In this document: positions 11,245 through 64,000 of the stretch, piece after piece | Layout of the letters: the number at the start of each line of letters is the position of its first letter | Position numbering within the stretch: the first letter of the stretch is position 1 | Source of the DNA: Sorghum bicolor | Taxonomy: Eukaryota; Streptophyta; Magnoliopsida; Poales; Poaceae | Direction of reading: 5' to 3' | Length of the DNA: 64,000 nucleotides | NCBI RefSeq assembly: GCF_000003195.3 | Contig: NC_012873.2 | Location: 3,867,894 to 3,931,893, forward strand | Made by a program: the position numbers and the translations under genes | Notes under the pieces: generated by a model | The model's database searches: none | What the model was told of the DNA's origin: nothing | Seen by the model: the letters and a program-made list of their open reading frames with translations, nothing else

Positions 11245-12792
11245 ATGGCGCAGCTTAGAGCACCCGCCGACGAGGAGAGGCTGCAGCAGGAGGCGCCGCA
11301 CGGCGTGGCCGGCGGCGGGGACGTGAGCAGCAACAAGAAGGCGCGCGCGGGGCTCTGCGGCGTGCTCCGCGAGCGCAAGGTGGTGGAGCTGGCGCGCGCC
11401 AAGCGGCGGCTGGTGGAGGTCCCCTACACCGCGACGCTGGCGCACACGGCGAACGCGCTCCTTGCCGCGCGCGTCTCCGGCGTGGCCGTGGCCGCGCCGC
11501 CGGGCCACTGGATCGGCGCCGGCGGGTCCATGATCCTCGAGTCCGACCCGGCCACCGGCGCCGTCCGCAAGCACTACATCGGCATGGTCAACATGCTCGA
11601 CATCCTCGCCCACATCGCCGAGGCCAGCGACGACGCCGAGGCCGACGGCGAGTCCGTCGACCTCGACCGCCGGATGGCCGTGCCGGTGTCCTCCGTCATC
11701 GGCCACTCCCTCGAGGGCCTCACTCTCTGGACGCTCCATCCGACAACCAGGTACGCCGCCCCGATCTCCAGTTCACTCTCTTTTTTTCCTCCCCTTCGCA
11801 TTGTATGCAACGAACGACACGATATGTTCGTTCCGCCAGCGTGCTGGACTGCATGGAGACGTTCAGCAAGGGGGTGCACCGCGCGCTGGTGCCGCTGGAG
11901 AGCTCGGCGGACAACGTGGTGGCGGTGGAGCTGGTGGAGTCGGCGCCGGGGTACCGGATGCTCACCCAGATGGACGTGGCGAGGTTCCTCAGGGCGCACG
12001 GCGCGGAGCTGAGGGACGTGCTGTCGCGCACCGTGCGCGAGCTCGGCGCCGTGAACGACACGGTGTTCGCGGTCGCCGGCGGCACCAAGGTGATCGACGC
12101 CATCAGGGCGATGCGGGCGGCGTCGCTGACCGCGGTGCCCGTCGTGGACCACGCCACCGCCGCCGCCGTTGGTAGCGGTACAGAGACCCTTCAATACGTG
12201 AGTCCTGCACGCACCTCCGATGATCCGAACATGCCGGCGACGACGCCATGTATATGTATCTCTCGCTGTGTCTCCTGTCCTGTGGTAAATGAAATTCCTT
12301 TCGCCTGCTGTGCTGCTGCTGCTGCTGCTGCTGCAGGGGAACGGGCAAAGGGCGATCGAGACGTTCTCGGCGACGGACCTGCGAGACTGCCCGGTGGCGC
12401 GGCTGCAGCCGTGGCTGGGGATCAGCGTGACGGAGTTCAAGAGGAAGGTGGCGGAGTACCGGGCGAGCACCAAGCCCGTGGTGCCCGGCGCCGACGCCAC
12501 GGACACCGGCACCCCGGCCGACGACACCCCCGCGGCCGTCGTCGCCGCGGACGACGAGCCGAGCGGCGAGCAGCAGGAGGAGGAGGAGGAGCCGGCGGCG
12601 CTGGTGACGTGCTCCCCGGAGAGCACCCTCGGCGAGGCGATCGAGGCGGTGGCATCGAGGCACGTGCACCGGCTGTGGGTGGTCGACGAGGAAGGGCTCC
12701 TTCACGGCGTCGTGTCGCTCACCGACATCCTCCGGGCGGTGCGGGACGCCGCGCTCGGCGAGGACCGGGAGCTGCACAGCATCGTGTCGTGA
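11245..12792 (+). CDS. PV42A: CBS-domain protein, SnRK1 regulatory gamma-subunit / PV42a-like
   Basis: Three exons give 439 aa: 11245-11750, 11840-12197 and 12337-12792. The joins THPTT/SVLDCMETF and ETLQY/GNGQRAIETFSATDLR are in frame. The body is four CBS motifs in two Bateman pairs, as in AMPK/SNF4 gamma subunits. Recognisable pieces include VPYTATLAHTANALLAARVSG and YIGMVNMLDILAHIAE (pair 1), then HRALVPLE, MLTQMDVARFLRAHG, and near the C-terminus VHRLWVVDEEGLLHGVVSLTD with the closing ILRAVRDAAL. Such proteins bind adenine nucleotides and modulate SnRK1-type kinases, in the cytosol or nucleus. An acidic Ala/Asp/Glu linker (about residues 345-380) separates the last motifs. The start at 11245 is the first ATG in good context; upstream in-frame codons look like leader. 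A (CTG)n run forms the last acceptor. The symbol follows the closest family I recognise. Confidence 0.87.
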
Positions 12793-24194: not shown

Positions 24195-26423
24195 TTAATC
24201 AACATCAAGATAAAGAGCTTCAAAGGCCTCCTCAAGGTACTTGTCCTCCACCATGTGCTGCAGTCTTGCTTCAGCATTCTCCCAGTCCTTGATGCAGGTA
24301 AGTGCCTCCACAGTCTCAGGGTTCAGCCTCCGGCGACGCTCCTCGATGATCCTGCCAGTAGTGCTAAAGGTAGATTCTGAAGAAATGGTTGACACAGGCA
24401 CAGTAAAGATATCTTTTGCAAGAACAGAAAGCACAGGATAAGTAAGCTTGTGCTCATGCCACCACTGCATGAGGTCAAATTCATCATCTAACTGGCTGAC
24501 TGTGTCAGAGTCCAAGTAGGATGCAAGCTCACTAGAGTTAGAAGCAGAAGCTGCATGTAGTAAAGAGGTGGCAGAAACACCCCTGGACTCATCAAGATTA
24601 GAAGGGAGGGAAGAACAACCAGCTCCAATGTCAAGCTCATCATCATCATAAATGTCAGCCCAAGCTGTTCTTTTCTTACCAGAAAGGGATGTAGGTACAA
24701 CCCTTTTGAGCCTAACAGAGCCATACATTGCATCATACCTGTTGTACATCCTGAAAAGAAGAGCTCTAGTGTCCAACAGCGTGTTAGTGTAACCAACATT
24801 AAAAAGAGAATTAAACTTTCTTAGGACTTTGTTAAAGCCCTTAATCTTAGCTCTTGGATCCAGTATGAATGCAATGGAGTAAAGATCAGGTATGTTCTTC
24901 CAGTATTTGTGATACTTGTCAATCATGGACTGCACAACAGATCTCAGATGCTCATCATGCTGATATTTATGCAGATGAATAGTAATTTTGACAATATGAT
25001 GGATCATAAGTGGAGAAGTAGGATAGTACACACCAGATAATGCAACAGTAGAGTCATAAAACAGTTCCAGAAATTGTAACATCTTCTCAGCCATTTCCTA
25101 GTGATCATCAGTCAACAGGAAAGGACCACCAGGTGCTCTAGGATAATTAGCCTCAATAAAAGTACTAAAAGTACTCCTATGAGGTAACAATGTTTTCAGC
25201 ATAAGGTAGGTGGAGTTCCACCTCACATCCATGTCTAGTGAGAACTTCCTAGGTCTAACAGATGAAGCAATGCAATAACTCTTGTATGCAGCAATTCTTT
25301 GATTAGATGAGTTCAAAAAAGAGATTGCAGTTCTAAAGTTGTCAATGAGAGGAGTAACAGCAACCAATGCTTCTTTAACAATCAGGTTAATAATATGACA
25401 AGCACATCTTTGATGCAAAAACAGATCAGCACCTAAATACTCTTTCAGTATAGGTTTCAATTTATCCATTGCATTTTTATTGGCAGATGCATTATCCAAA
25501 GTCACAGAGAAAACCTTGTTGAGTATACCATACTCAGCAAGGACAGTTTTAACACGCTCAGCAATGTTATCAGCATTATGTGAGACATCAATCAACCTTA
25601 AACCAAGCACTCTTTTCTCTAATTGCCAATCAACATTAATGAAATGAGTCACAACAGACAGATAATCTTCTTTGGCCTTTCCAGACCAAATGTCAGAGGT
25701 AACAGCAACAGATGACACAGCATTATCTTGCAAACAAGCAATCAACTTTTCACGTTGGGCATTAAAGTACTTAAACAGATCTCTACCAGTTGTTTGCTTA
25801 GACACAGGATTAAAAGCAGGATTATGAGCCTTTTTAATGAATTCTTTAAACGCGTCTGTTTCACCAATCATTAAGGGCAAATCTAGCCTAGCAAGCATAC
25901 GAACAAGCTCAACACGAGCAAGGTCAGGATTGTAACTCCAGCTTCTAACAGTTCCATCAGGATTAAAACCTATATGAGTTTGAGACATGCGACACTTCTC
26001 ACGACGCCGAACACATACCTTAATATGTCGAGTAAGATGCCCAGTTCCATTAGCAGAATAAGCAGAGTATCGTCTCTTGCAGTGTTTGCAAATAGAAGCA
26101 TACCTGACGGGGTTTTTTTTACCTGGCACCTTCTTGAAAAGCTTCTCAAAATCCTCCCAGACAGCAGAGGTAGAAGGCCGATTGGAGCCTGCTACCTCAC
26201 TGTCGCCACCGTCGGCATCAGGATCGGCGGCACCATCCACCTCGATCGGGACCCCAGTTTGGTCACCGGGAAGGGGATCAGCAGCAGACCGGCCAAATAG
26301 CTCGTTCATGTCATCGGCGACATTGTCATCCTCGTCATCCCCGGTTAACCCGCACATCCGCAGCTCGTCGTTCTGGGTGTGGTCAAACTCCCCTTCATCG
26401 GCATCGGCTATGCCCGGAGCCAT
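24195..26423 (-). pseudogene. hAT transposase with BED zinc finger and C-terminal dimerisation domain, one internal stop
   Basis: The frame is open from ATG at 26423 to the terminal stop at 24195 except for one in-frame TAG at 25100-25098, giving 741 sense codons. Domains in order: an acidic N-terminus; a BED zinc finger (about residues 87-137) with CKHC followed by H-x3-H-x3-C; an RNase H-like region with TSDIWS and VTLDNASAN; an RCACHIINL block; and the hAT dimerisation domain (VPVSTISSESTFS, RRRRLNPETVEAL). The protein would cut and paste its own element in the nucleus. An intron probably precedes the start: donor GTAAGC just below 26530 and acceptor GATGCAG at about 26451, placing a non-coding first exon upstream. 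The stop sits mid-protein with both flanks fully conserved, so the lesion looks young. Confidence 0.9.
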
Positions 26424-27109
26424 CTCTGCCGTCTCCGGTTCCTCGACGGCTGCATCAAAGAACACAAATTAGGGTTAGGCTAGGGTACGGGATTAGAGTT
26501 AGGGATTTGGGGTTAGGGTTTTGCTTACCTCGAACGCCGGAGCACCGGAAACGAGGACGAGATGGACCGGAGGCACACCTCCGGTACCTCAACGGAGTCC
26601 GGAGCCCCGGAGGTGGCCGCTGCCGGCGATGTGAACGATAGATAGAAGACGGAGATGCGACGGGGAAGGGAGCAGATGGAGGATCACGGCTTGAACCGGC
26701 AGATCTGATGCTGATGGAGAAGATTAAGATTGAAGACAGAGAGGGGGACAAGGAGATGGAAGACGGATGCCACCGGCCCTTACCCGCCGGAGAACACCAT
26801 GGTCACGGCGGAGCAGGGGAAAGATTTCCAAACGAGCAGGCCAACGACTGAGACGGCGGGCCGGTGCCCGGCGGCGAGAGGGAGGATGGAGTTGGAGACG
26901 AGAGCGGCGCGAGGAAGACGAGCGAGGCAGCGAGCGAGTCGAGAGCAGAGAGCGGCGTGTCAGCGTGCGGCGAGAGGGGCAGAGGGCGAAATGACCTAGG
27001 GTTAGGGTTTGGGGTGGAGGACGGCCGCACGTCGGCTTATATACGCCGACCGGCCGACGCCCTGGATCGAAGGGCTCTCCTTCAACGCCCCCCGATCCAA
27101 CGGCTACAA

Positions 27110-31286: not shown

Positions 31287-34200
31287 TCACTCGTTATGTA
31301 GTTGCAGAGCATCAGAGATAAGGGAAACATCTTCCCAGGTTGCTAGTTCTGATGGAAATCCATCCCACTGAATGAGCATTTGGTCAACCAACTTGGCACC
31401 ACGCAGGATAGAACGACGAGCCAACACCTTCTGCTGATTTGCTTCCTGCGTTACTTCATAGCATACTGAAGCTAAATCTGTACTTACAGAGGTAGTCGGA
31501 GGGATATGCATCTTAAGCTGTGACACATGTACCACCGGGTGAATCTTTGCTCCTGCTGGCAAGTCAAGCTTATAAGCAACTTGTCCGACGCGCTGAAGTA
31601 TCTTGAATGGACCATAGAACCGAAAGGATAGCTTGTGATTCGATTTGCTGGCCACTGTTGACTGAACAAAAGGTTGAAGCTTTAAGAACACTGAATCTCC
31701 AACTTTGAACTGTCGTTCTGATCTATGTTTGTCTGCCTGTGATTTCATTCTCTGCTGTGCTCTGAGTAGTTGTTGTTTAATCAATTGAGAAAGATGTTCT
31801 CGATCAGTGAGCCATTGTTCCAGATCAGGCACAGTACATAACTGAAGATTTGCTACTCCCAGCTGCCGAGGAGTATATCCATAAAGCACTTCAAAGGGTG
31901 ATTTACCTAGGGCTGAATGAACTGAGGTATTGTACCAGAATTCTGCCACAGAAATCCACTTATTCCATTGGCGTGGACAAGAGTGTACTCTACATCGTAG
32001 GAATCCCTCAACACATTGATTTAAGCGCTCAGTTTGACCATCCGTTTGCGGATGGTAAGAGGAACTCATCATCAGTTTAGTGTCTCAAAATTTGAACAAC
32101 TGCTGCCAAACTGCACTCGTGAATACTGGGTCTCTATCAGAGATAATTGTCTTTGGTAATCCATGAAGTTTGTAGACATTGTTCATGAATAACTGAGCAA
32201 TTTGTAAGGCTGTGTAGGGATGCTTAATGGGTATGAAGTGTCCATACTTTGTAAACTTGTCGATGACCACAAGCAAAGCGTTGTACTGATCAGATGCTGG
32301 TAAACCTTCGACAAAGTCAAGACTGACAATTTCCCATGCCTGCTGAGGTACTGGAAGTGGCTGTAGTAGTCCTGGTGTTTTGATTCTTTCAGTTTTTGCT
32401 TGCTGGCAAGTTTGACACTGCTTCACAAAGTCTTGAACTGTACTTTTGAGATTTGGCCAAGCAAAGATTTGTCTCACTCTTGCATAGGTAGCACTGATCC
32501 CAGAGTGGCCACCCACACCACTGTCATGAAGGGCAATCAGTATATGATGTTGAGCAGTGCGATTGTTCCCCACCCAGATTCGTCCTCTGAACCTTAGCAC
32601 TCCATTGTGTAGTGTATAGTCTGGGTGACTGTCAGGAGCAATAGCTAATTCCGCGATCAACTGCTTAGCTTGATCATCTTCCTCATAGCCTTCCTTAAGC
32701 TTTTGCACCCAAGTAGGAATGCATTCAGAAATAGCCTGGACCTCTTGATCATGTTCCACTCTAGATAGAGCATCAGCCGCAGCATTGGTTGTTCCTTTCT
32801 TGTACTGAATGGTGTACTGTAGGTCCATCAACTTAATCATTGCCTTCCGTTGGAGTTTAGTTGCTAGTCTTTGTCCTGTCAGATGCTGTAGACTCCTATG
32901 ATCAGTTCTTATGATGAATGGCTGATGCTGTAGATAGGATCTCCATCTTTCTACTGCATGTAATATGGCCATACATTCCTTCTCATATACTGACAAGGCT
33001 TGATTTCTTGGTCCCAAAGCTTTGCTAAAATATGCTACTGGGTGCTGGTCCTGCATGAGTACAGCTCCAATGCCACAGTCACTTGCATCAGTTTCCACTG
33101 TAAACTGTTTTGCAAAATCTGGTATAGCCAGAACAGGAGCTGTGACTAACTGATGTTTCAGTGTTCTGAAAGCTTCATCAGCTGTTGATGTCCATATGAA
33201 CTGAACATTCTTCTTTAAAAGATCAGTGAGTGGTCTGCTTATTAACCCATAGTTTCTAATGAACTTTCTGTAATAACCAGTGAGACCCAGAAATCCCCTC
33301 AGTTGCTTCACTGTTTTTGGTGTGGGCCAGATGCTCACTGCTTGTATCTTAGATTGATCTGTGGCCACACCTTGAGCAGAAATGACATGGCCTAAATATT
33401 CCACAGTATTTGTTGCAAATGAGCACTTGGACTTTTTTATCAAGAACTGATGATGTTTCAGTATCTGAAACACCTTCTTAAGCAATGCCACATGTTCATC
33501 CAGTGTCTTTGCATAAATGAGAATATCATCCATAAATACCAGGACTCCCTTTCTCAATAGGTCAGCAAATATGACATTCATAAAACTTTGGAAGGTTGCT
33601 GGTGCATTTGTGAGTCCAAAAGGCATCACCAAAAATTCAAATAGTCCATTATGTGTCCTGAATGCAGTTTTATATTCTTCACCAGCAGCCATGCAGATTT
33701 GGTGATACCCAGACCTGAAATCTAGTTTTGTAAACCATCTAGATCCAGCCAACTCATCTAATAACTCATCTACTACTAGCATTGGGTGTTTATGCTTGAC
33801 AGTGATTGCATTCAAATGTCTGTAGTCTATGCAAAACCTCCATGTTCCATCCTTTTTTCTCACTAGGAGTACAGGTGAAGCAAAAGAGCTTGTACTAGGC
33901 CTAATTACACCTTGAGAAAGCATCTGCTTCAGTTGCCTTTCAATCTCAGTCTTCTGTATAGGAGAGTATCTGTATGGTCTAACTTTGATAGGTTGAGCTC
34001 CAGGTATCAATGGAATTCTATGATCAACAATTCGTTGTGGTGGCAAACCTGCTGGTTCAGCAAACAAGGCATCATATTCAGATAACAATTCTGTCACACT
34101 GTTAGGCATGTTAGCCATTTGTTCCTGGGACTCAGGTCTTGGTTCAATAGAGTCTACAACATGTACAGTAGGTGGAATCATCTGAATACAATGTGACACA

Positions 34201-35966
34201 GCTCCCTGTTTCAGTAACCCTTTGAGTTTTGCAGCACTGACAGGTTTGCATTCCTTGATGTTGTCAATCACACCTTGTAGTTTGACTGTTTTGCCATCCA
34301 CAGAAAATTGCATTGTTTTCAGCTTGTAGTCAATCAATAATGGACTGTAGTCCTCCAGCCAGTCCTCTCCAAGGATGAGATCGTAGCACTTGAGTGGAAG
34401 CACTCTAGCATCAGATACAAAAGTATGACCCTGCACAAACCATTTCAATTGTGGCACCTTTTGATCACACTTCATCAATCCCCCATCAGCAGCTCTAAAG
34501 GTAGTAGCATCACATTGTACAGTAGGTAACCGAAGATGGTTAACTAGAGTTTCACTGACAAACGTGCCCACACTGCCTGAATCAACAAGGACCAAGAGAT
34601 GATGTTTGCCAATTTGTGCCAATAGCTTCAGAGTTTGCCGATTTGCACGTTGAGTTGTAGGAATAGACTGAACTGCTAACACTTCTTGAGCTGATTCAGA
34701 TATCTCTTCATCGGTATCTTCGTCTTCTTGGGGATCCACTATATCTAATGCATCCAGTATCTCTTCAAGAACATGCAGAGAAATATGAGCAGGACACTTA
34801 TGGGCCGGGCTCCACTTCTCACCACACTTGAAACACAATCCATTTCTCCTTCTGAAGGATTTGAGACTGGCCAGTTTGTCATCAACTCTAGAATCTTGTT
34901 CCCCACTGCTTGTTTTTGAGGTATCCATCTTTGGACGAGGAACCCCTCTGGTGAAATCCCGCCCAGAGGACTTGCCTTTAGCGAATCCAATCTCCTGCTC
35001 CTGGATCAAAGCCAGGGCACTTGCTGTATCCACATCCCTCGGTCGATGAAGTAAGATTGCAGACCTGATATCCTCCCGAAGACCACTGATGAATCGTGTG
35101 ACAAACACAGTATCATCAATTTCTGGATTGTACAGCAGGATTCCATGTGCCAATTTCTCGAACTCAGTCTGATACTCCAGCACAGAGGAGGTTTGCTTCA
35201 GGGCATCCAGTTGTCGCAGCAACACCTGATAGCGATCCTTGTCGAACTTCGTGAGCACCATCTCTACCAACTTGCCCCAATCTGCAATTCGTCCTCGACG
35301 CTGCACCGTCTGCAGCCACACAGCCGCCGCGCCCTTGAAATTGAGCGCTGCGAACCTCGTCTTCATCGTCTCGTGGACGGCATAGACCTCGAAATAGAGC
35401 TCACATTGTTCACGCCAAAGACGCGGGTCAGATCCATCGAATTTTGGAAAGTCCATCTTAGGAAAAGGTGGAGAGTGATGCGAAGATTCAGCAGAACAAT
35501 GGTGTGGTAAGGCGAAACTCATGGGCGTACCATTGCCGTTACGAGGCGGAAGCGCTCCGAGGAGGCTTCCGCCCACGCCGTGCCCCATGGGCGAATCAAC
35601 CCGCGGTGGCGCCATACTTGACGAGGCGCCTGGCGCGGTATTGAGGTCGATCCCCGCGATCGGTAGAGGATGAAGCGGTGGAGGCGGTTCACGAGCTTGC
35701 CACTGCACTGGTGGCGGTGGAGGCGGAGGCGGAGGCGGAGGAGGTCGGAACTCCAATCGCTGGATCCGCGCCGCCGTGTCGTCGATCCGTGCCGTGGAGT
35801 CCGTGGTCCTCTTGAGCAGCGTCTCCATGGACTCTTGCGCGGTGGTGCGCCAGGCTTCCAGCGAACTCAACTTGTCCAGGGAGGTGGACATCATCTCTTG
35901 AAAGCCGGCGAACTGCTTCGCCATCTCTTGCATCGTCGTCTTCAGGTCATCGACCGAAGCCGCCAT
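31287..35966 (-). pseudogene. gag-pol polyprotein of the gypsy element, one internal stop
   Basis: The frame is open from ATG at 35966 to 31287 apart from an in-frame TGA at 32087-32085. The order from the N-terminus is a coiled-coil-like gag start (MAASVDDLKTTMQEMAKQ), a Pro-rich stretch, gag, and a CCHC zinc knuckle (CFKCGEKWSPAHKC, about residue 375). Next come the aspartic protease (VLVDSGSVGTFVS), reverse transcriptase (VFMDDILIYAK, about residue 808), RNase H (TDASDCGIGAVL, about residue 960) and integrase with an HHCC finger (CQTCQQAK) and LDFVEGLP. The segment after the stop holds YHPQTDGQTERLNQ and a C-terminal chromodomain (DQMLIQWDGFPSELATWEDV). The stop falls inside the integrase core. 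Everything else is intact, so the copy was lost recently or depends on read-through or partner copies. Confidence 0.92.
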
Positions 35967-36405: not shown

Positions 36406-38763
36406 ATGCCCTCGCTCTTAGGCGCTGCCACGCGCCTCCTCCTCGTCTTGGCCCTCAGTGCCGCTGGCGAGACCGTGCACCACTACCAAGCCTCGCAGTC
36501 AGCCGCGCTGCTAGCGTGGAAGAGGAGTCTCGGCGACCCTGTAGCACTCTCCACCTGGACAGAGACCTCCAGGGCGTGCGACGCATGGCGTGGCGTCACC
36601 TGCGACGCGGCCGGCCACGTCACGTCAATTCGACTTGGGAATGTCGGCCTCAATGGCGGCCTAGCGCTCGACCTCGCAGCCTTCCCGGCACTGGCGGCTG
36701 TTGACCTTCACGGGAACAACCTTGGTGGCGCCATACCGCCGGAGTTCGTGCGTGGGAGAAGTGGCATCAGCTACCTCGACCTCTCTGGCAATGCGTTCAC
36801 AGGGCCGATACCAGATGCGTTGCCAAAGAGTCTGAAGCACCTCAACCTGACCGGCAACGCGTTCACGGGGCCCATACCGGTGTCACTGGCGAGGATGGCA
36901 CTCCAGGATCTGCATATAGGCTTCAACAACATCAGCGGCGGCGTCCCCGAGTTCTTGGGCTCGATGTTGCAGCTCAAGTCGCTGGTGCTTGGCTCGAACC
37001 CCCTTGGAGGGTGGCTCCCCTCTGCTCTCGGCAGGCTCTGCATGCTGCAGCACCTTGATATCAAGAGTGCTGGGCTCGTGGGCACTGTACCACGGGAGCT
37101 TGGCAATCTTAGGCTGCTCAGGTTACTGGATCTTTCCGGGAACAAGCTTTCCGGGGCCTTATCACCGTCGCTTGCCGGAATGAAGAAGATGCAGGAGTTC
37201 GGTATTTCATCAAACATGCTCACTGGTGATATCCCGGGGCTTCTGTTTGCGAGCTGGCCCGATCTGATCTCATTCCAAGTCCAATACAATTTGTTCACCG
37301 GCAACATCCCACCTGAGGTCGGAAAGGCAAAGGACCTGAAGATTGCTTACCTATTTGGCAATAATTTCAGCGGGTTTATCCCACAGGAATTTGGCGAGTT
37401 GGAGCAGCTGCGAGAATTGGATCTATCGGAGAACTCACTCACGGGGCCGATCCCCAGTTCATTTGGCCAACTAAAGAAACTAACAAGCCTGATGCTCCCC
37501 GCCAACACACTCACTGGTATGATCCCGCCAGAGATCGGAAACATGTCCGCGCTGCGGACCTTCGACGTGAATACAAACCAACTTGAAGGCGAGCTGCCAG
37601 CCAGCATATGCTCCCTGAGGAACCTGCAGTACCTCAAACTGTTCAACAACAAGTTGAATGGCACTCTCCCGCCGGACCTTGGTGCAGGGTTGCACTTGGT
37701 CGTAGCCATCTTCGCCAACAACAGTTTTTCTGGCGAGCTGCCCCGGAGCCTCTGCGATGGATTCGCGCTGCATAACCTCACTGCAGAACATAACAATTTC
37801 ACTGGAAAGCTGCCGCCTTGCCTGAAGAACTGCACCAAGCTGTGCCGGGTGCAACTAGAGGGGAACCACTTCAACGGAGACATCTCGGAGGTGTTTGGGG
37901 TCCATACCAGCTTGAAATACCTTGACCTGTCCGGTAACCATTTCACCGGCCAGTTGACAGATGATTGGGGCCTTTGCACTTCTATGGAACAATTGCGCAT
38001 CGACGGAAATAATTTATCGGGCAGCATCCCGGCTTCGTTCGGGAAGATGCAGGACCTCAAGGACCTTAGCTTGGCTGGGAATAGACTGACCGGAACAATT
38101 CCAACGGAATTGAGTCATTTGAACTTATTCAGCCTCAATTTGAGTGGCAATTCATTTTCGGGGCCAATTCCTGTGGGCAACAACTCCAATATGGAAAAAC
38201 TTGATCTGTCCAGTAACAGGTTCACGGGGACAGTGCCAGAGGGAATTGGGCAGCTCATATCACTAATGTTGCTGGATCTTAGCAAAAACTATCTTTCTGG
38301 TCCAATAACAGCTGATATTGGGAATCTTGTGCACCTTCAAATCCTCCTTGATCTTAGCTGCAACTCGCTAGCGGGAGACATCCCGGCAACTTTTAGCAAG
38401 CTCACCAGTCTGCAAAAGCTCAATCTGTCACACAACAAGCTTGTTGGTTCGATTCCATCGGGCTTGTTTCACCTTTGGAGTCTGGACACCTTTGACTATT
38501 CTTACAACCAGCTGGATTGTCAAATATCTTCTGGAAAGGCTCTCAAGCAAATCATACCGCCTTGCAATCAAAGTTCCAGCAGGCCCTCTTCATGGCACCA
38601 CAAGAAAAAAAGAGAACTTATTGCAGCAGGTTTCTTAGGATTTGAGGTAGTCTTGTTTGCAGTCCTTGTTGGTTGTCTTGTGTATTACTGGATAAGTTAT
38701 TGCAAGGAGAAAGCACCTGCAAAACTGGAAGAAGCTGGACAGAAACCACCTGATTACCTGTAA
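36406..38763 (+). CDS. Leucine-rich-repeat receptor-like protein without kinase domain
   Basis: A single exon encodes 785 aa. It has a signal peptide (about residues 1-21, LLLVLALSAAG), then an LRR N-terminal cap (about 30-72, SAALLAWKRSLGDP and a paired-Cys CDAWRGVTCD). More than twenty extracellular repeats of the plant type follow (LxxLDLSxNxLxGxIP), with many N-glycosylation sites. A juxtamembrane basic patch (HHKKKRE), one membrane span (about 742-768, FEVVLFAVLVGCLVYYW) and a short tail of about 25 residues ending PPDYL complete it. This is the layout of plant receptor-like proteins, which sit in the plasma membrane and signal through partner kinases in immunity or development. The repeats most resemble MIK2-type LRR receptor kinases, but no kinase motif is present downstream. 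It may be a natural receptor-like protein or a kinase-less derivative. A retrotransposon separates it from its probable leader. Confidence 0.9.
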   Translation: MPSLLGAATRLLLVLALSAAGETVHHYQASQSAALLAWKRSLGDPVALSTWTETSRACDAWRGVTCDAAGHVTSIRLGNVGLNGGLALDLAAFPALAAVDLHGNNLGGAIPPEFVRGRSGISYLDLSGNAFTGPIPDALPKSLKHLNLTGNAFTGPIPVSLARMALQDLHIGFNNISGGVPEFLGSMLQLKSLVLGSNPLGGWLPSALGRLCMLQHLDIKSAGLVGTVPRELGNLRLLRLLDLSGNKLSGALSPSLAGMKKMQEFGISSNMLTGDIPGLLFASWPDLISFQVQYNLFTGNIPPEVGKAKDLKIAYLFGNNFSGFIPQEFGELEQLRELDLSENSLTGPIPSSFGQLKKLTSLMLPANTLTGMIPPEIGNMSALRTFDVNTNQLEGELPASICSLRNLQYLKLFNNKLNGTLPPDLGAGLHLVVAIFANNSFSGELPRSLCDGFALHNLTAEHNNFTGKLPPCLKNCTKLCRVQLEGNHFNGDISEVFGVHTSLKYLDLSGNHFTGQLTDDWGLCTSMEQLRIDGNNLSGSIPASFGKMQDLKDLSLAGNRLTGTIPTELSHLNLFSLNLSGNSFSGPIPVGNNSNMEKLDLSSNRFTGTVPEGIGQLISLMLLDLSKNYLSGPITADIGNLVHLQILLDLSCNSLAGDIPATFSKLTSLQKLNLSHNKLVGSIPSGLFHLWSLDTFDYSYNQLDCQISSGKALKQIIPPCNQSSSRPSSWHHKKKRELIAAGFLGFEVVLFAVLVGCLVYYWISYCKEKAPAKLEEAGQKPPDYL

Positions 38764-41809: not shown

Positions 41810-43332
41810 TTATGCATAGCTGTCAAAAGACTTGAGGCAGAAGCAGTCGCTGGGGAGGCCATCGGGCAAGATATCGCAGCGCCCACCAGCATAACCTTTG
41901 TTCATGCACTGCTTGAGGCAGGATAGGGCATTGCTTTTGTTGGGGAAACATGCGCCAATCTTGATCATCCGGTGACCTTTGAGGTTGGCATTTATTCAAA
42001 GAATTTTAGTTCAAAAGGAATTGACAAAGAACCAGCTACATGCATTATTTAAGTGCATGTGCAACGACTTTATCTAAAACAATATGACCATGTTCTTACC
42101 ACTAGTTGATGCAGGTGGCTCCTCGGGGGGGTCGTCGTAACCCTTTGGCGGCGATGGGCCCGGAATAGCACGATGCGATGTTGATAGCTCATCAGGGTTG
42201 GCTTGACCACCTACATATATGCAACATAACCGAGCAAGTGAAATATAGTGTCTGTAGTATGGTCCAATAATTAGATCTGTTAGTGAGGTACTAGTTGAAT
42301 TGTCGAATGCTATCTAAAACAATATGACCATGTCATTACCTCCGGTTGATGCAGGTGGCTCCTCGGGGGGGTCGTCGTAACCCTTCGGTGGCGATGGCCC
42401 CGGAATTGCACGACGTGATGTTGATAGCTCATCAGGGTTGGCTTGACCACCTACATATATGCAGCATAACCGAGCAAGTGAAGTATAGCGTCAGTAGTAT
42501 GATCTAATAACTAGATCTATTAGTGAGGTACTAGTTGAATTATCGAATGCTATCTAAAACAATATAACCATGTTCTTACTGCCAGTTGATGCCGGTGGCC
42601 CCTCGGGGGGGTCGTCATAACCCTTCGGCGGAGATGGTCCTGGAATAGCGTGACGTGATGTTGATAGCTCACCAAAGTTGGCTTGACCACCTACATATAT
42701 ATATGTAGCATAACCGAGTAAGTGAAAGTGTATAAGTATGGTCCAATAATTAGATCTGTTAGTGAGGTAGTAGTTGAATTGTCGAATGCTATCTAAAATA
42801 ATAGGAAAATGTGATTACCGCCAGTTGATGCAGGGGGCTCCTCCGGAGGTTCGTTACTCTTCGGCGGCGATGGCCCCGGAACAGCACGGTGCGATATCGA
42901 TAGCTCATCGGTGTTGGCTTGACCACCTACATATATGCAGCATAACCGAGCAAGTGAAATATAGTGTTCGTAGTATGGTCCAATAATTAGATCTGTTAGT
43001 GAGGTAATAGTTGAATTGTCGAATGCTATCTAAACAATATGACCATGTTCTTACCGCCAGTTGATGCAGGTGGCTCCTCAGGCGGTTCGTCGTAACCCTT
43101 TGGCGGCGATGGCCCTGGAATAGCGCGACGCGATGCTAGTAGCTCACCAGGGTTGGCTTGACCACCTACATATATGCAGCATAACTGAGCAAGTGAAATA
43201 TAGTGTATGTAGTAGGTCTGTTAGTGAGGTACTAGTTGAATTGTCAAATGCATAATTCATACGCTTACCGGTGGCCAAGAGTAGCACGAGTAGAGGGACG
43301 AAGAGAGCCATGGTTGCAGATCGGTTGATCAT
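41810..43332 (-). CDS. Defensin-like secreted cysteine-rich protein with five tandem proline-rich exons
   Basis: Seven exons give 260 aa: 43332-43269, 43165-43055, 42926-42819, 42690-42580, 42450-42340, 42210-42100 and 41976-41810. Exon 1 encodes a signal peptide (MINRSATMALFVPLLVLLLA). Exons 2-6 are repeats of one 36-37 residue proline-rich unit (GQANPDELSTS, then RRAIPGPSPPKGYDDPPEEP, then PASTG). Every one is flanked by phase-1 introns and is a multiple of three. Exon 7 carries six cysteines spaced C-x9-C-x3-C-x9-C-x10-C-x1-C; C-x3-C, GRC and CFC are the CS-alpha-beta signature of defensin-like peptides. A secreted antimicrobial or signalling peptide released from, or tethered to, a proline-rich pro-region is a reasonable guess. 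The paralogues at 51673-52258 and 55140-55766 have one proline-rich exon each. Splice sites fit at all joins; there is no transcript evidence. Confidence 0.85.
42100..43165 (-). repeat. Five-copy tandem exon-intron array inside the defensin-like gene
   Basis: The unit is a 108-111 bp exon plus a 123-129 bp intron. Exon tops are 43165, 42926, 42690, 42450 and 42210, giving a period of 236-240 bp. Both exon and intron are conserved between copies, for example TTGGCTTGACCACCTACATA at each acceptor and ATCTAAAACAATATGACCAT in the introns on the plus strand. Copy 3 ends with A instead of G at the junction (Gly to Ser), and copy 2 lacks one codon. All five copies stay open with intact splice sites. 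Confidence 0.93.
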
Positions 43333-43375: not shown

Positions 43376-43384
43376 CCATTTATA
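43376..43384 (-). promoter_or_regulatory. TATA box of the first defensin-like gene
   Basis: On the minus strand TATAAATGG is followed by ACGCACATAG, 44 bp upstream of the start codon. The same TATAAATRGACGC core lies 43-53 bp upstream of the other two paralogues, so it is conserved promoter sequence. Confidence 0.75.
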
Positions 43385-51672: not shown

Positions 51673-52258
51673 TCAAAAAGTGAAGCAGTAACAGTCGCCG
51701 CGGAGGCCACCAGGCAGAGGGTCACAGTGCCCGCCAGCATAGCCTTTGCTCGTGCACAGCTTGAGGCAGGAGAGGGCATTGCCATTATTGCCATTGTTGG
51801 GGAAGCATGGACCAATCTTGATCATCCCTTGACCTTTGGGGTAAACAAATTTCAGTTAAAAAGGAATCAACCAAGAACCAGCTACATGCACTATATATTT
51901 AGATGCATATATATATGCGCAACAACTTTATCCAAATAAAAAAATGCAATATGACCATGTTCTTACCGCCAGTTGTTGTTGCCGATGGCCCCTCAGAGGG
52001 TTTGTAACCCTCCGGCAGCGACGGCCCAAGAACAGCATGGCGCGATGTTGATAGCTCATTGGTGTTGGCTTGACAACCTACATCCGTGCAGCATAAACAA
52101 GCAAGTGAAATAGAGTTTCTATAGTATGGTTCAGTAATCATATATGTTACTGAGGTACTAGTTAAATTGTCAAATGCATAATTTGTAGGCTTACCAGAGG
52201 CCAAGAGTAGCACGAGTAAGAGAGGGAGGAATGGAGCCATCACTGCGGACCGATTCAT
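51673..52258 (-). CDS. Defensin-like secreted cysteine-rich protein, single proline-rich exon
   Basis: Three exons give 111 aa: 52258-52195 (signal peptide, MNRSAVMAPFLPLLLVLLLA), 52077-51967 (one 37-residue unit, CQANTNELSTSRHAVLGPSL and onward) and 51833-51673 (cysteine domain). Introns are phase 1 as in its paralogues. The cysteines are spaced C-x12-C-x3-C-x9-C-x10-C-x1-C; the first loop is lengthened by Asn-Gly repeats (NNGNNGNALS). The unit lost several prolines (PSLPEGYKPSEGPS) and gained a cysteine at its first residue, making seven in the secreted chain. An unpaired cysteine could permit dimerisation or be a sign of decay. The frame and splice sites are intact. Likely a secreted antimicrobial or signalling peptide (family inference). 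Confidence 0.82.
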
Positions 52259-55139: not shown

Positions 55140-55766
55140 CTATGCACGGCCATCAAGCGTGACGCAGAAGCAGTCGCCGGGGAGGCCGCCAGACACAGTG
55201 TCACAGCGCCCACCAGCATAGCCTTTGCTCGTGCATCGCTTGATGCAGGAGGGAGCATTGCCTTTGTCGGAGAGAGCATTGCTGTCTCTGCTTGGGAAGC
55301 ATGGACCAATCTTGATCTCCCGGTGACGGTGACCTTTAGGGATGAACAAGTTAGAAAGGAATCCACCAAGAACCCTCTACATGCATTATATATTTCAGAT
55401 GCATATATATGTGCAATGGCTTTATTATCTAAAAATTGTGTAATATAGGCCATGTTCTTATTACCGCCAGTTGCTGCCGATGGCCCCATCGAGGTTTCAT
55501 AGCTCTTGCTATGTGATGTTGACGGTTCATCGGCGTTGGCTTGACCACCTATATACATGTGGCATGATATAAGCAAGTGAAATGGAGTGTCTGGAGTATG
55601 GTCTAGTAATCAGATCTGTTACAGTAACGACAGATCTAATTTAACTAGTAATAGTGTTACTAATTAAATTGTCAAATGCATAATTCGTAGGCTTACTGGT
55701 GGCCAAGAATAGCACGAGCAAGAGAGGGAGAAGCAGAGCCATGGCTGCAGACCGATTGATCATCAT
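55140..55766 (-). CDS. Defensin-like secreted cysteine-rich protein, shortened proline-rich exon
   Basis: Three exons give 115 aa: 55766-55697 (signal peptide, MMINRSAAMALLLPLLLVLF), 55548-55465 (a 28-residue remnant of the proline-rich unit, GQANADEPSTSHSKSYETSM) and 55333-55140 (cysteine domain). Introns are phase 1. Six cysteines are spaced C-x17-C-x3-C-x9-C-x10-C-x1-C; the first loop is expanded by what looks like an internal SNALSDKGNAPS duplication. An extra HR pair (HRHREIKIG) precedes the domain. Conserved GYAGGRC, LPGDCFC and the final exon acceptor match its paralogues. Start 55766 is the first of two adjacent ATGs. The proline-rich exon has lost its PPKGYD core, so the pro-region seems free to vary while the cysteine domain is held. 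Confidence 0.82.
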
Positions 55767-56756: not shown

Positions 56757-58960
56757 TACTCCCTCCGTACATAAAAAAAACGGCTTTACTCGCGTCCGGA
56801 CGTCCGGCGCTTGAGACGCGTCCGGACGCCGGCGCCTGTTATCCGCACCCGTATTTAATTACTATATTCGTTAATCGCTGGTCCCCACAACTTCTGATAT
56901 TGTTTTATACAGTATATGGGCAGTGAGCTGCCAGACTCACTCGCATGCTCGCATGCATGGTGTTCTTTTGCTCGATCACTTCTTTTTTTTTGAATTTTCA
57001 ATCACTTTATTTACATACACGATTGCATATAGCTCCTGCCCACCTGGCCACGCGCTGCTGCGCCTAGCCGAGAGCTGCTACCGCACCTGCTCGCATGTCG
57101 TTGTTGTCACACTTGCCCACGCATTGCTGCTCCTGTTGCTGCCGCGCCCACTGGCCGGTCTCGCTTGCCGCTATGGTATGCATATTCCTGTTGCCGCGTC
57201 CACTTCGTTTTCCACGCACACGGAGGGCTCTATGCCTGTACGAAACTGTGTCCACTTCTAATGATCTACTAACACTTGTAACATGAAGTATTTGCTCAAA
57301 CATACGTCTAAACCAAATGGAACACAAAAAACTATGTAGTGCAACATCAGAATATAAATACTACAACACCGTAAAAATATATAGTGCAACATAAAAAAAA
57401 ACATGTACTGCAACAACGAAAAAATAAATACTGCAACATAGAAAATTATGTAATGCAACATCACAATAATATATAGTACAACATCGAAAAACATGTACTA
57501 CAACAACAAAAAAATTTGTACTGCAATATCAAAAATTATATACTGCAACATCACAAAAATAAGTAGTGCAACATCGAGAAAACATATAATGCAAAATCGA
57601 AAAACATATACTGCAATTGTGATGCAATATCGAAAATTATATACTGCAACATCACAAAAATATGTAGTGCAACATCGAAAAAACATATATTGCGATATCA
57701 AAAAAATTGTGATGCAATATTGAAATTTATGTACTGCAACGTCACAAAAATATGTAGTGCAACATAAAAAAACATATACTGCAACATTGAAAAAATATGT
57801 ACTACAACATCGAAAGTTATATGCTGCAACATAAAAAATTATGTACTCCAACATCTCAAATAGTACTACTGCAATATTGTAAAAAAAATATTACAACGTT
57901 CCAAAATCATCTGTTGCAATATTCTAAAACACCCATTGCAACACCGGCAATAAAAAAAGCATATAAAACAACCCTTGGCCCATCACCTTTGAGCTCGTTG
58001 TAGGGAGGAGGGAATAGGATCACAAAGCTTGTTAGAATCCTACGACCGCATTCCTCAGATCTAGAGGAGGAGAAGCACTCAGATCCAGATGAGAAGGAGG
58101 AGACGAGAGCTCAAATCTAGAGAAGGATCGATATACCTTATTACGGTCGTCCTTGTCTTCGGTGAGGGGAAGGAGGGAAGGAGCATGGTTGGACGGGATA
58201 ACAGCGAGCTGGCACGCGGGCGCGATGTTTGTCCCGGGGGCACAAGTAGGCCTTGAGAATGGTATTGCAGTGCAGCAACAAGTGGGCGTGGAGGAGAGTG
58301 TGGGCAGAGTGGGTGCATGGAGGAGAGGGGTCATGGGCAAGAGGAAGAGCGCGAGTGGAGTGGCGTACGAGTTGACGACGGATATCCTAATAGAATCATT
58401 ACCGTACAAATAACATATAGAGACCCATACGAAAATGATTGTTATTTATATTGACCATGCTAAGTTGGCTCAATATGATTAGACACTATATTTGTGGTTT
58501 ATAATTATTTTTAGACCAAAAGCATTTTTGTGCACATACATATAAGTATAGACGGTCGTCATACATTGCTCTAGCTGGTCTTCAGCACATTATATCTCTC
58601 CATGCATGTTGATTATGTCCTTTTGTAGTATGTATATAGTGTGTAGTACATACACGTGCTTATGCTACGTTGGCAAAGTTATGTCTATGAACCAAAATAT
58701 AACCAGACCCACTTTTTTATATTAAAAAACCAGCGCGGGCAAGAGCGGAGCGGGTCACCGAGCTATATGTTCTGACTTGCTATTTGGGTTAATACGGGGC
58801 TGTGCGGAGCGGTCCGTCCGGACGAACGAACGCCCGTGTCCAATCATTTCCGTAAAAAAAACGTCATCCTGGCTCGGAACGGAATTGCGAAAAAAACGTC
58901 GTTGTAGCACCGGAGCCCCTCCGTTGGACTTCTTTGCCCCTGCCTCATCGATCGCAGCTA
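56757..58960. repeat. Unclassified repeat region: Stowaway-like start, CGTCCGGACG motifs, tandem minisatellite
   Basis: The region opens CTCCCTCCGTACATAAAAAA, like a Stowaway terminus, and then GCGTCCGGACGTCCGGCGC and GCGTCCGGACGCCGGCGCC (56796-56835). A related GGTCCGTCCGGACGAACG occurs near 58811-58829 and could be the opposite end. Between them lie the minisatellite and a purine-rich block (58000-58420). I recall similar GCAACAT plus CGTCCGGACG assemblies in several grass genomes, probably a non-autonomous DNA transposon family, but I cannot name it or set exact ends. Confidence 0.45.
57335..57945 (+). repeat. Minisatellite of a GCAACAT-containing unit, about 610 bp
   Basis: About twenty-five imperfect units of 20-26 bp follow the pattern TAGTGCAACATCGAAAAAAC / TACTGCAACATCACAAAAAT, head to tail. 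Neighbouring pairs are more alike at two-unit spacing (about 48 bp), which suggests a higher-order dimer. Open frames through it are by-products of the repeat. Confidence 0.88.
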
Positions 58961-62335: not shown

Positions 62336-63688
62336 CTACTGTTTCTTGTGCTCTTTAATTTCTTTAATGATACCGTCAGCAAGGGAATCTGTATCATAGT
62401 TCTTGCCATAAAACTTGACAAACTTCATCTCTGGGTTCATCAGGTACCTGAAAGTAGATCAACAACCAGTCAGTCAGTGTTTTGACAGAAAGCATAGGTA
62501 TTTTATCACTCTCACAATGGTAGCACATAGCAGTAGCAGAAAGAAATCAGCGAGCTTCCTATAGCTACAATGAGTTCAACTGTTCAAGGAGAGTACAACT
62601 GCCAGCCAGCATGTAATTCCAGTATTGTGACATTCCCTGTATTTCACATTCAGAGTCTTTACAGTGTCCAATATCATAAAATTTTCCTTTTAGATATGCA
62701 CTGGAGCCTCGCAAAATAATATTCAGAATTGGTTAAAAAAAACAATAGCCAAATTAGCGGGTTTCTTCATTTTGGTTTGCATGCTTATGCCATAGGGTAA
62801 AATAATAAAATAACTTGAACTAGACCATCCCAATTGCAGAACATTATCAAAATCAAAATTAGCTAAATGCCCAAAGCCATTGTGCAAGATGGAAGAGATT
62901 AAAAATAGCATACATGACAATTGAGTGATCAACAAGATAGTCAGAACCCTCCTCCTCTGTCTTCATATAGTAAACTCTGTAAGCACGTGCAACTTGTCTT
63001 ACTTCATCTGTCGTGCCTGTGAGTCCTATCAGATCTGGATGGAACTCTGTGAATCACAAATAATTCATCATCAATGAGCAATCAAAAGAATAAGATACTG
63101 CAAACTAACAAGAGGTCAAAGAGCTACAATTTTAAGTGATGACAAGCATTATGAACTAAGGGACAATTGCACAGACACACCTTTAACATAGTCCCGGACC
63201 TGCTCAACAGTATCTCTTTCAGGATCAACTGTGATGAAAACTGGCACAACATCCAGTTTTGCCTTTTCCTCTGCATATAATAACATATTATAATGACTGG
63301 AAAATATGCTAACTTAAACTGTCTACTAGCTCCACTGGCGCTTAAATGGAATGCAAGACAACAGTGTTAGATGAATACAAGAAGATATATTGAATTATTG
63401 ATAAACAATAAGCAGACACAACAGGATATACGAAGTTATTTGTACCCAAGGAACAAAAGAATCGAATTAACTTACTAATTTTGTCAATTGCTGCAGCCAT
63501 TTTCTGTAGTTCATCTGGACAAATGTCAGGACAGTGTGTAAATCCGAAATAAAGCAGAGTCCATTTGCCCATGAAATCCTTTTCAGTAACAGGTTTCCCA
63601 TCATGATTCAGAAGCTTGAATGGACCGCCAACGGCTGCAGTGCCTACTGATTGTCCAGGCTTCACAGCACTTGTTCTACTCTTCAATT
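62336..63688 (-). CDS. SCO1: SCO1-like mitochondrial copper chaperone for cytochrome c oxidase (3' exons; 5' end beyond the window)
   Basis: Four exons on the minus strand, 63688-63476, 63270-63181, 63046-62914 and 62445-62336, join in frame. They encode the SCO1/SenC thioredoxin-like domain. Visible motifs are [20 protein letters not shown] with the copper-binding CxxxC (CPDIC), [51 protein letters not shown] containing the third copper ligand His, and [18 protein letters not shown] before the C-terminal KEHKKQ. The protein delivers copper to the CuA site of COX2 at the mitochondrial inner membrane. All metal ligands are present, so it should be functional (Arabidopsis HCC1 type). The first visible exon begins mid-codon after TTACCCAG. 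The exons for the targeting peptide and membrane anchor are not found up to 64000 and must lie farther right. Confidence 0.93.
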
Positions 63689-64000
63689 CTGGGTAAGATG
63701 GAACAGAAAAAAAATTATGACAAATTAAACAGCTATCAGAATTCAAGGAGCTAATACCTCCGTGCTTCAGATAAATACTTCCAAAAGACACATGTATCCA
63801 TTTGTACTCATTTTGTGGTTTAATGTTGTCAAAACAAAAATACAAGTTATAATATCATATACAATTTGCACAAAGTGTTCTGACAATAGTTCCACAGACC
63901 ATTGGTGACTGGGGCCAAATTGTTGTGAAAGGCAAACCAGTATGTAAGGCAGGGCAAGCTTAGGCAACCAGCTGAGTTATGGCTCTCCGTTTTGCATACA
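63689..64000 (-). other. Intron of the SCO1-like gene, running off the right edge
   Basis: The preceding exon is not found between 63689 and 64000. The sequence is AT-rich without a donor preceded by recognisable SCO1 coding, so this is interpreted as intron. Confidence 0.6.

What the first reader, a model, noticed from the sequence alone, without database searches (positions are those of the whole stretch)
41810..43332. Defensin-like gene grown by in-frame tandem amplification of one symmetric exon
Five consecutive exons of 108-111 bp, each with its own intron, encode the same 36-37 residue proline-rich unit between a signal peptide and a six-cysteine CS-alpha-beta domain. Every unit has phase 1 introns on both sides and a length divisible by three, so copies can be gained, lost or skipped without breaking the frame. 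The paralogues carry a single unit. I do not know of a described defensin-like family built this way. It suggests a pro-region or stalk of tunable length, with copy-number polymorphism and exon skipping both possible. Repeat structure and open frames are seen directly; secretion and peptide role follow from family features; tunable length is inference.
Basis: partly seen in the sequence, partly recalled or inferred. Interest (0 to 1): 0.93.

Follow-up and report, generated by a model that had tools for sequence, protein, structure and literature searches.

The report
Sorghum defensin-like gene with five-fold exon
A sorghum gene for a small defensin-like secreted protein carries five in-frame copies of the exon for its proline-rich front section, where its relatives have one; the copying scar in the DNA is clear, but whether the extra length does anything is untested.

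Summary
A signal-peptide-like exon, five proline-rich exons (111, 108, 111, 111, 111 nt) and a six-cysteine exon splice into 260 codons. All six introns are GT-AG and phase 1; all 32 unit subsets stay in frame. Paralogues 8 and 12 kb away carry one unit each; the nearer equals Sorghum bicolor protein BDA96_04G053500 over all 111 residues, supporting the splice reading. A Miscanthus protein has one unit.

New here: 4 of 4 inter-unit introns share one junction, the start of the last intron fused to the end of the first. One ~240-bp tandem duplication founded the array. Changes among units lean synonymous (22 of 38; 14.4 expected, CpG-matched, P 0.003), but not significantly in CpG-free columns (7 of 18, P 0.15).

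The cysteine domain is defensin-like, below Pfam cut-offs. Transcription, secretion, exon skipping and copy-number polymorphism could not be tested. Animal antimicrobial-peptide genes grow this way; I recognised no plant defensin-like case in my searches. A new variant of a known kind.

The parts
43379..43384 (-). TATA-like element (TATAAA) about 50 nt upstream of the start codon
   Evidence: letters checked; the consensus is recalled, no eukaryotic promoter program was run
43269..43332 (-). exon 1: start codon (in-frame ATGs at 43332 and 43311) and hydrophobic signal-peptide-like core; phase 1 donor
   Evidence: signal peptide by inspection
43166..43268 (-). intron 1 (103 nt); its 3' part matches the 3' part of the inter-unit introns
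43055..43165 (-). unit exon U1 (111 nt, phase 1-1)
42927..43054 (-). fused inter-unit intron 2 (128 nt)
42819..42926 (-). unit exon U2 (108 nt, one codon missing; donor GTAAT)
42691..42818 (-). fused inter-unit intron 3 (128 nt)
42580..42690 (-). unit exon U3 (111 nt)
42451..42579 (-). fused inter-unit intron 4 (129 nt)
42340..42450 (-). unit exon U4 (111 nt; donor GTAAT)
42211..42339 (-). fused inter-unit intron 5 (129 nt); founding junction between 42311 and 42310
42100..42210 (-). unit exon U5 (111 nt)
41977..42099 (-). last intron (123 nt); its first ~29 nt match the 5' ends of the inter-unit introns
41810..41976 (-). terminal exon: six-cysteine CS-alpha-beta-type domain and stop codon
52195..52258 (-). 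paralogue B (BDA96_04G053500), exon 1
51967..52077 (-). paralogue B, its single unit exon (111 nt, phase 1-1)
51673..51833 (-). paralogue B, six-cysteine exon
55697..55766 (-). paralogue C, exon 1
55465..55548 (-). paralogue C, its single shortened unit exon (84 nt, phase 1-1)
55140..55333 (-). paralogue C, six-cysteine exon

Best explanation
This is a protein-coding Sorghum bicolor gene for a secreted six-cysteine defensin-like peptide. Its proline-rich, acidic N-terminal pro-region (or spacer) has grown from one exon to five. A single-unit ancestor had a symmetric phase 1-1 exon between two short introns. One ~240-bp tandem duplication with breakpoints in those introns made a two-unit gene with a fused intron that kept its splice sites (shown by the shared junction). 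Later unequal exchange or slippage between similar units raised the number to five (inferred). All units are probably spliced into one precursor (inferred). After signal-peptide removal the basic cysteine domain (net +3) carries about 184 residues of acidic (net -14), proline-rich, cysteine-free chain, most likely a disordered, possibly hydroxyproline-modified pro-region or spacer that is cleaved off or holds the domain away from a surface (inferred). Skipping units would change only the length.
For: Open spliced frame with six GT-AG phase 1 introns. The same splice reading of paralogue B reproduces annotated protein P0001 letter for letter, 111 aa. Single-unit relatives: 2 of 2 paralogues in the window and Miscanthus P0002, the latter known only as a protein. 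Same fused junction in 4 of 4 inter-unit introns. Unit changes 22 synonymous of 38, expected 13.1 (P 0.00135) or 14.4 with stricter CpG matching (P 0.003). Eight proline columns unchanged in 5 of 5 units although their codons hold 9 synonymous changes (base- and CpG-matched probability 0.004). The one length difference among the unit exons is a whole codon, whereas the inter-unit introns differ by gaps of other sizes. Beta-alpha-beta-beta model, mean pLDDT 74.7, best PDB match 2mz0. Unit net charges -2 to -4, cysteine domain +3; array 184 residues, 43 Pro, net -14.
Against: No transcript or peptide evidence was available. The 260-aa protein was not found in a collection of about 5.8 billion proteins (7,995 candidates scored, none at E <= 10), nor any protein of about 83-262 aa sharing three 5-residue words with its cysteine domain, although neighbour B is held there; so this gene model seems not to be in those sources. 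In columns free of CpG in every unit the synonymous excess is not significant (7 of 18, expected 4.6, P 0.15), and first+second codon positions of U1-U4 there differ about as much as the four inter-unit introns (0.096 against 0.106). The last acceptor (CTCAAAG) has a weak pyrimidine tract, though paralogues B and C have the same kind. No fold match reached E <= 0.001. No signal-peptide predictor was run.
Confidence: 0.66

Rival explanations
1. Drifting or dying duplicate: the array grew by slippage and has no function, the gene being little or not transcribed.
For: Protein not found in the collection while its neighbour is held; no significant selection signal outside CpG columns; symmetric exons can multiply without penalty.
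Against: No stop or frameshift in seven exons; six usable splice-site pairs; TATA-like element in place; CpG-matched synonymous excess P 0.003; eight prolines kept in 5 of 5 units.
Confidence: 0.2
2. Multi-copy peptide precursor: each unit releases its own small proline-rich peptide, the cysteine domain being one more product, as in apidaecin or caerulein precursors.
For: Tandem exons in a secreted-type precursor; invariant core PGPSPPK and PPE.PPAST in 5 of 5 units; such exon arrays exist in animal antimicrobial-peptide genes (passages).
Against: The candidate dibasic site RR before the core is intact in only 2 of 5 units (U1, U4), the others reading HR or RH. Likeness to known plant peptide families was not tested.
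Confidence: 0.12
3. Assembly or gene-model artefact.
For: Tandem repeats are prone to misassembly; the model is mine.
Against: The units differ from one another at 8.8-18.3% of 208-226 aligned sites, so they are not one unit duplicated in assembly; splice sites match those of the annotated paralogue.
Confidence: 0.03

Closest known systems
Single-unit paralogue BDA96_04G053500 (Sorghum bicolor) and Miscanthus lutarioriparius P0002
   Same: Signal exon, one unit and six-cysteine exon (gene structure seen for the sorghum copy, protein only for Miscanthus); same cysteine spacing apart from the first loop
   Different: One unit instead of five; the sorghum paralogue has four of the eight core prolines, the Miscanthus protein all eight (by eye)
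Plant defensin-like peptides with CS-alpha-beta fold (nearest solved: 2mz0, PDFL2.1 / Defensin-like protein 32, Arabidopsis)
   Same: CxxxC and CxC motifs, beta-alpha-beta-beta model, best hit by sequence (E 0.0054) and by fold (E 0.0052, TM 0.66)
   Different: Below the curated cut-offs of PF24552, PF00304 and PF10868; long multi-exon N-terminal region
Animal antimicrobial-peptide genes grown by exon repetition: honeybee apidaecin, Xenopus laevis caerulein and magainin
   Same: Tandemly repeated exons in a secreted defence-peptide precursor (passages in PMC3415428; PMC3731216)
   Different: There the repeated exon encodes the active peptide; here it encodes the region before a single cysteine domain, and the units have diverged, whereas the caerulein and magainin exons are near-identical
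Defensin-polyproline-linked proteins of Asteraceae pollen (Art v 1, Amb a 4, Par h 1)
   Same: Defensin-like domain joined to a proline-rich region (start of the abstract of PMC5771466, listing)
   Different: Proline-rich part follows the defensin domain there (recalled) and precedes it here; I know of no repeated exons there and did not look

Membership tests
Plant defensin-like (CS-alpha-beta) peptide | CxxxC and CxC within a CS-alpha-beta fold | tested here: met
   Spacing C9C3C9C10C1C; beta-alpha-beta-beta model, mean pLDDT 74.7, pTM 0.53, from 3 sequences; top Foldseek hit 2mz0, but no hit at E <= 0.001
Plant defensin-like (CS-alpha-beta) peptide | cleavable signal peptide | tested here: inconclusive
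   Hydrophobic core and GQA|N-like site read by eye; no predictor on hand
Classical plant defensin (gamma-thionin, PF00304) | eight cysteines | tested here: not met
   Six cysteines in the focal domain, both paralogues and Miscanthus P0002
Classical plant defensin (gamma-thionin, PF00304) | Pfam gathering score | tested here: not met
   21.9 bits against 25.1 for the cysteine domain; PF24552 22.4 against 27; PF10868 19.4 against 25.1
Multi-copy peptide precursor (apidaecin or caerulein kind) | tandem unit-coding exons | tested here: met
Multi-copy peptide precursor (apidaecin or caerulein kind) | processing site flanking each unit | tested here: not met
   Dibasic RR in 2 of 5 units only; sites of other plant proteases not testable
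Multi-copy peptide precursor (apidaecin or caerulein kind) | released unit peptides | not testable with these tools
   No peptidomics
Defensin-polyproline-linked proteins (Art v 1 kind) | proline-rich region C-terminal to the defensin domain (recalled) | tested here: not met
   The proline-rich array is N-terminal

The most novel reading that the evidence does not exclude
The array is a working length dial. Each unit exon carries its own splice sites and also the residues GQAN that, after exon 1, look like the signal-peptidase site (recalled rule). Every isoform that keeps at least one unit would then be secreted with an intact cysteine domain, and plants would set spacer length by exon skipping (units 2 and 4, with GTAAT donors, skipped first) and by unit number between accessions.
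Probability: 0.15. Interest if true: 0.75.

Novelty: new variant of a known kind. Interest (0 to 1): 0.5.

Why it matters
It is a clean case of a plant defence-peptide-like gene lengthened one exon at a time, with single-unit neighbours 8 and 12 kb away and a readable founding breakpoint. If transcribed, it would let people test whether the length of a proline-rich pro-region matters for a cysteine-rich peptide, and whether unit number varies within a crop. It is also a gene of short exons that the annotation behind the searched collection seems to have missed.

Tried and rejected
Protein database searches: the full 260-aa protein gave no hit at E <= 10 among 7,995 scored candidates; a cysteine-domain search framed by a 150-aa two-unit query found no candidate sharing three words (it also missed the Miscanthus protein, so it reaches near-identical domains only); paralogue B as query found 2 proteins among 9 candidates, itself and the Miscanthus one. 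Rfam on the whole window: 0 matches at gathering score. The sigma-70/terminator scan is not meaningful for a plant gene and is not used. First models of paralogues B and C were one or two bases off at exon ends and frameshifted; corrected. Intron limits for B and C are off by one or two bases, which does not touch the junction argument. Raw dN/dS of 0.12-0.33 among units is not used as main evidence, because synonymous divergence is inflated by CpG decay (third positions of U1-U4: 0.300 overall, 0.127 outside CpG columns). Unit phylogeny: order of duplication unresolved, best bootstrap 0.43 for U4+U5; the all-unit clade there is trivial because B was the root. No absolute date was computed.

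Literature considered: the grain-mould defensins of PMC8063297 as this gene (12 of 24 places seen: the defensin identifiers shown lie on chromosomes 1, 3, 5, 7 and 8; its one Sobic.004G05 gene is a reductase); PMC6972786 has the word defensin zero times. PMC7407236 (12 of 29 places) mined sequences with the 8-Cys motif, so it would miss this family. PMC5557327 holds the words exon, intron and proline zero times. Searches served for leads only.

The 8-Cys gene at C4:4553789 (L008, read; cysteines counted) is a distant relative (E 7e-4) in which a short pro-region shares the exon of the cysteine domain; not pursued.

Full report
Identity of the window. It maps to contig C4, 3867894-3931893, of a 709-Mb genome in 846 contigs. 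Paralogue B, spliced as I read it, equals protein P0001 (111 aa) letter for letter; a source names it hypothetical protein BDA96_04G053500 [Sorghum bicolor]. The plant is therefore Sorghum bicolor or a very close relative.

The gene. On the minus strand, exon 1 (43332-43269) ends in phase 1. Five unit exons follow (43165-43055, 42926-42819, 42690-42580, 42450-42340, 42210-42100), then the cysteine exon (41976-41810). Introns are 103, 128, 128, 129, 129 and 123 nt, all GT...AG. The CDS is 783 nt and the protein 260 aa without internal stop. A TATA-like element lies at 43384-43379. All 32 subsets of the five units, the empty one included, keep frame and the intact cysteine domain, while retaining any one of the six introns gives a stop before the cysteine domain.

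How the array arose. Introns 2-5 each begin like the last intron (28-29 nt, up to TTTAGATA) and then switch, at the same place in 4 of 4, to the 3' part of intron 1 (GCATTCGACAATTCA or a one-base variant; intron 1 has GCATTTGACAATTCA). The repeat finder, blind to exons, placed a boundary between two copies at 42310/42311, the same point. This is what one tandem duplication with breakpoints in both flanking introns leaves behind, and further copies inherit the scar. Paralogues B and C have unfused introns and one unit each, and Miscanthus P0002 reads as a single unit, so one unit is most simply the ancestral state. Over 208-226 aligned sites the units differ by 8.8-18.3% among themselves, and over 209-223 sites by 20.6-24.7% from B, so the amplification followed the split from B or the units have been homogenised since. 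The order of later steps is unresolved (best bootstrap 0.43).

Is it under constraint? Of 38 derived changes among the five units, 22 are synonymous; expected 13.1 with consensus CpG classes (P 0.00135) and 14.4 with any-unit CpG classes (P 0.003). At sites not CpG in the consensus: 14 of 27, expected 8.5, P 0.015. In columns with no CpG in any unit: 7 of 18, expected 4.6, P 0.15; in CpG columns: 15 of 20, expected 9.8, P 0.005. So there is moderate evidence of selection on the protein, most of it carried by CpG columns. Outside CpG columns, first+second positions of U1-U4 (0.096), third positions (0.127) and the four inter-unit introns (0.106) differ to much the same degree. Eight proline columns are invariant in 5 of 5 units although their codons hold 9 synonymous changes; base- and CpG-matched probability 0.004. 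Miscanthus P0002 has the same eight prolines, B four of them, C about one (by eye). The first 14 nt of all five unit exons are identical, which could reflect splicing needs, protein needs or youth.

The cysteine domain. Six cysteines, C9C3C9C10C1C; the focal gene, B, C and P0002 share all spacings except the first loop (9, 12, 17, 11). Pfam gives defensin families below cut-off (PF24552 22.4 of 27 bits; PF00304 21.9 of 25.1). The nearest solved chain by sequence and by fold is 2mz0, named Defensin-like protein 32 and PDFL2.1 of Arabidopsis thaliana. The model is beta-alpha-beta-beta with mean pLDDT 74.7 from an alignment of only three sequences, and no fold match reached E 0.001. In the whole genome the domain search scored five candidates: three close copies, all in this window, a distant 8-Cys gene at C4:4.55 Mb (E 7e-4; read) and a chance-level hit on C5 (E 1.3).

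Mechanism. Shown: gene anatomy, founding junction, frame-safe units. Inferred: transcription, secretion, one precursor with all units, and a pro-region or spacer role. The array has 184 residues, 43 prolines, no cysteine and net charge -14; the cysteine domain is +3. One unit (-2 to -4) already about offsets the domain's charge, so charge neutralisation alone does not explain five. A spacer, a graded pro-region, or drift remain possible. A unit-peptide precursor is disfavoured because the RR before the core is intact in 2 of 5 units only.

A prediction. Donors after U2 and U4 read GTAAT where the other four read GTAAG, and U3 ends in A rather than G. If exons are skipped, U2 and U4 (and perhaps U3) should go first. 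That these are weaker donors rests on recalled consensus.

Literature. Repeated peptide-coding exons are described for honeybee apidaecin (statement in PMC3415428, passages) and for Xenopus laevis caerulein and magainin (PMC3731216, passages). Searches for a plant defensin-like gene with repeated exons gave none that I recognised from the listings: 20 of 234 papers, 20 of 26, 7 of 7, 1 of 1 and 10 of 71 were listed. The library holds open-licence papers only, so this is weak evidence of absence. The identifier search found 0 papers with BDA96_04G053500 among 7 with any of its terms.

Verdict. The finding is real and correctly placed. Its evolutionary claim is strengthened by the shared breakpoint. 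Its functional claim (tunable length) is open. The kind of growth is known in animals; I found no description of a plant instance.

Noticed in passing
36406-38763 (+): 785-aa open frame with an LRRNT_2 domain and many leucine-rich repeats plus a hydrophobic C-terminal stretch and no kinase match: looks like a receptor-like protein, about 3 kb from the defensin-like gene.
   Followed up: partly
57329-57950: AT-rich tandem array with a 45-bp period (TGCAACATCgaaaaa-like), no coding sense apparent.
   Followed up: no
31287-35966 (-): Two long open frames that look like gag-pol pieces of a Gypsy-type retrotransposon (by eye).
   Followed up: no
24195-26465 (-): Two adjacent open frames resembling a hAT-type transposase by eye; 25098-26465 gave no Pfam match at 0.001, 24195-25094 was not scanned.
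   Followed up: no
63342-63845 (-): Coding stretch of a SCO1/SenC copper-chaperone-like gene (PF02630, E 3e-19).
   Followed up: partly
12289-12792 (+): Open frame with a CBS domain (PF00571, E 3.3e-12).
   Followed up: partly
43165-42211 (exons U1-U4 and introns 2-5): Third codon positions of U1-U4 differ 2.7 times as much as the introns between units (0.300 against 0.112); most of the excess sits in CpG columns (0.127 outside them), as expected of methylated exons.
   Followed up: yes
43357 (-): An out-of-frame ATG upstream of the start codon, near the expected transcription start; similar sequence in paralogue B.
   Followed up: no
L008 1127-1632: Distant 8-cysteine defensin-like gene on the same chromosome whose pro-region lies in the same exon as the cysteine domain.
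   Followed up: partly
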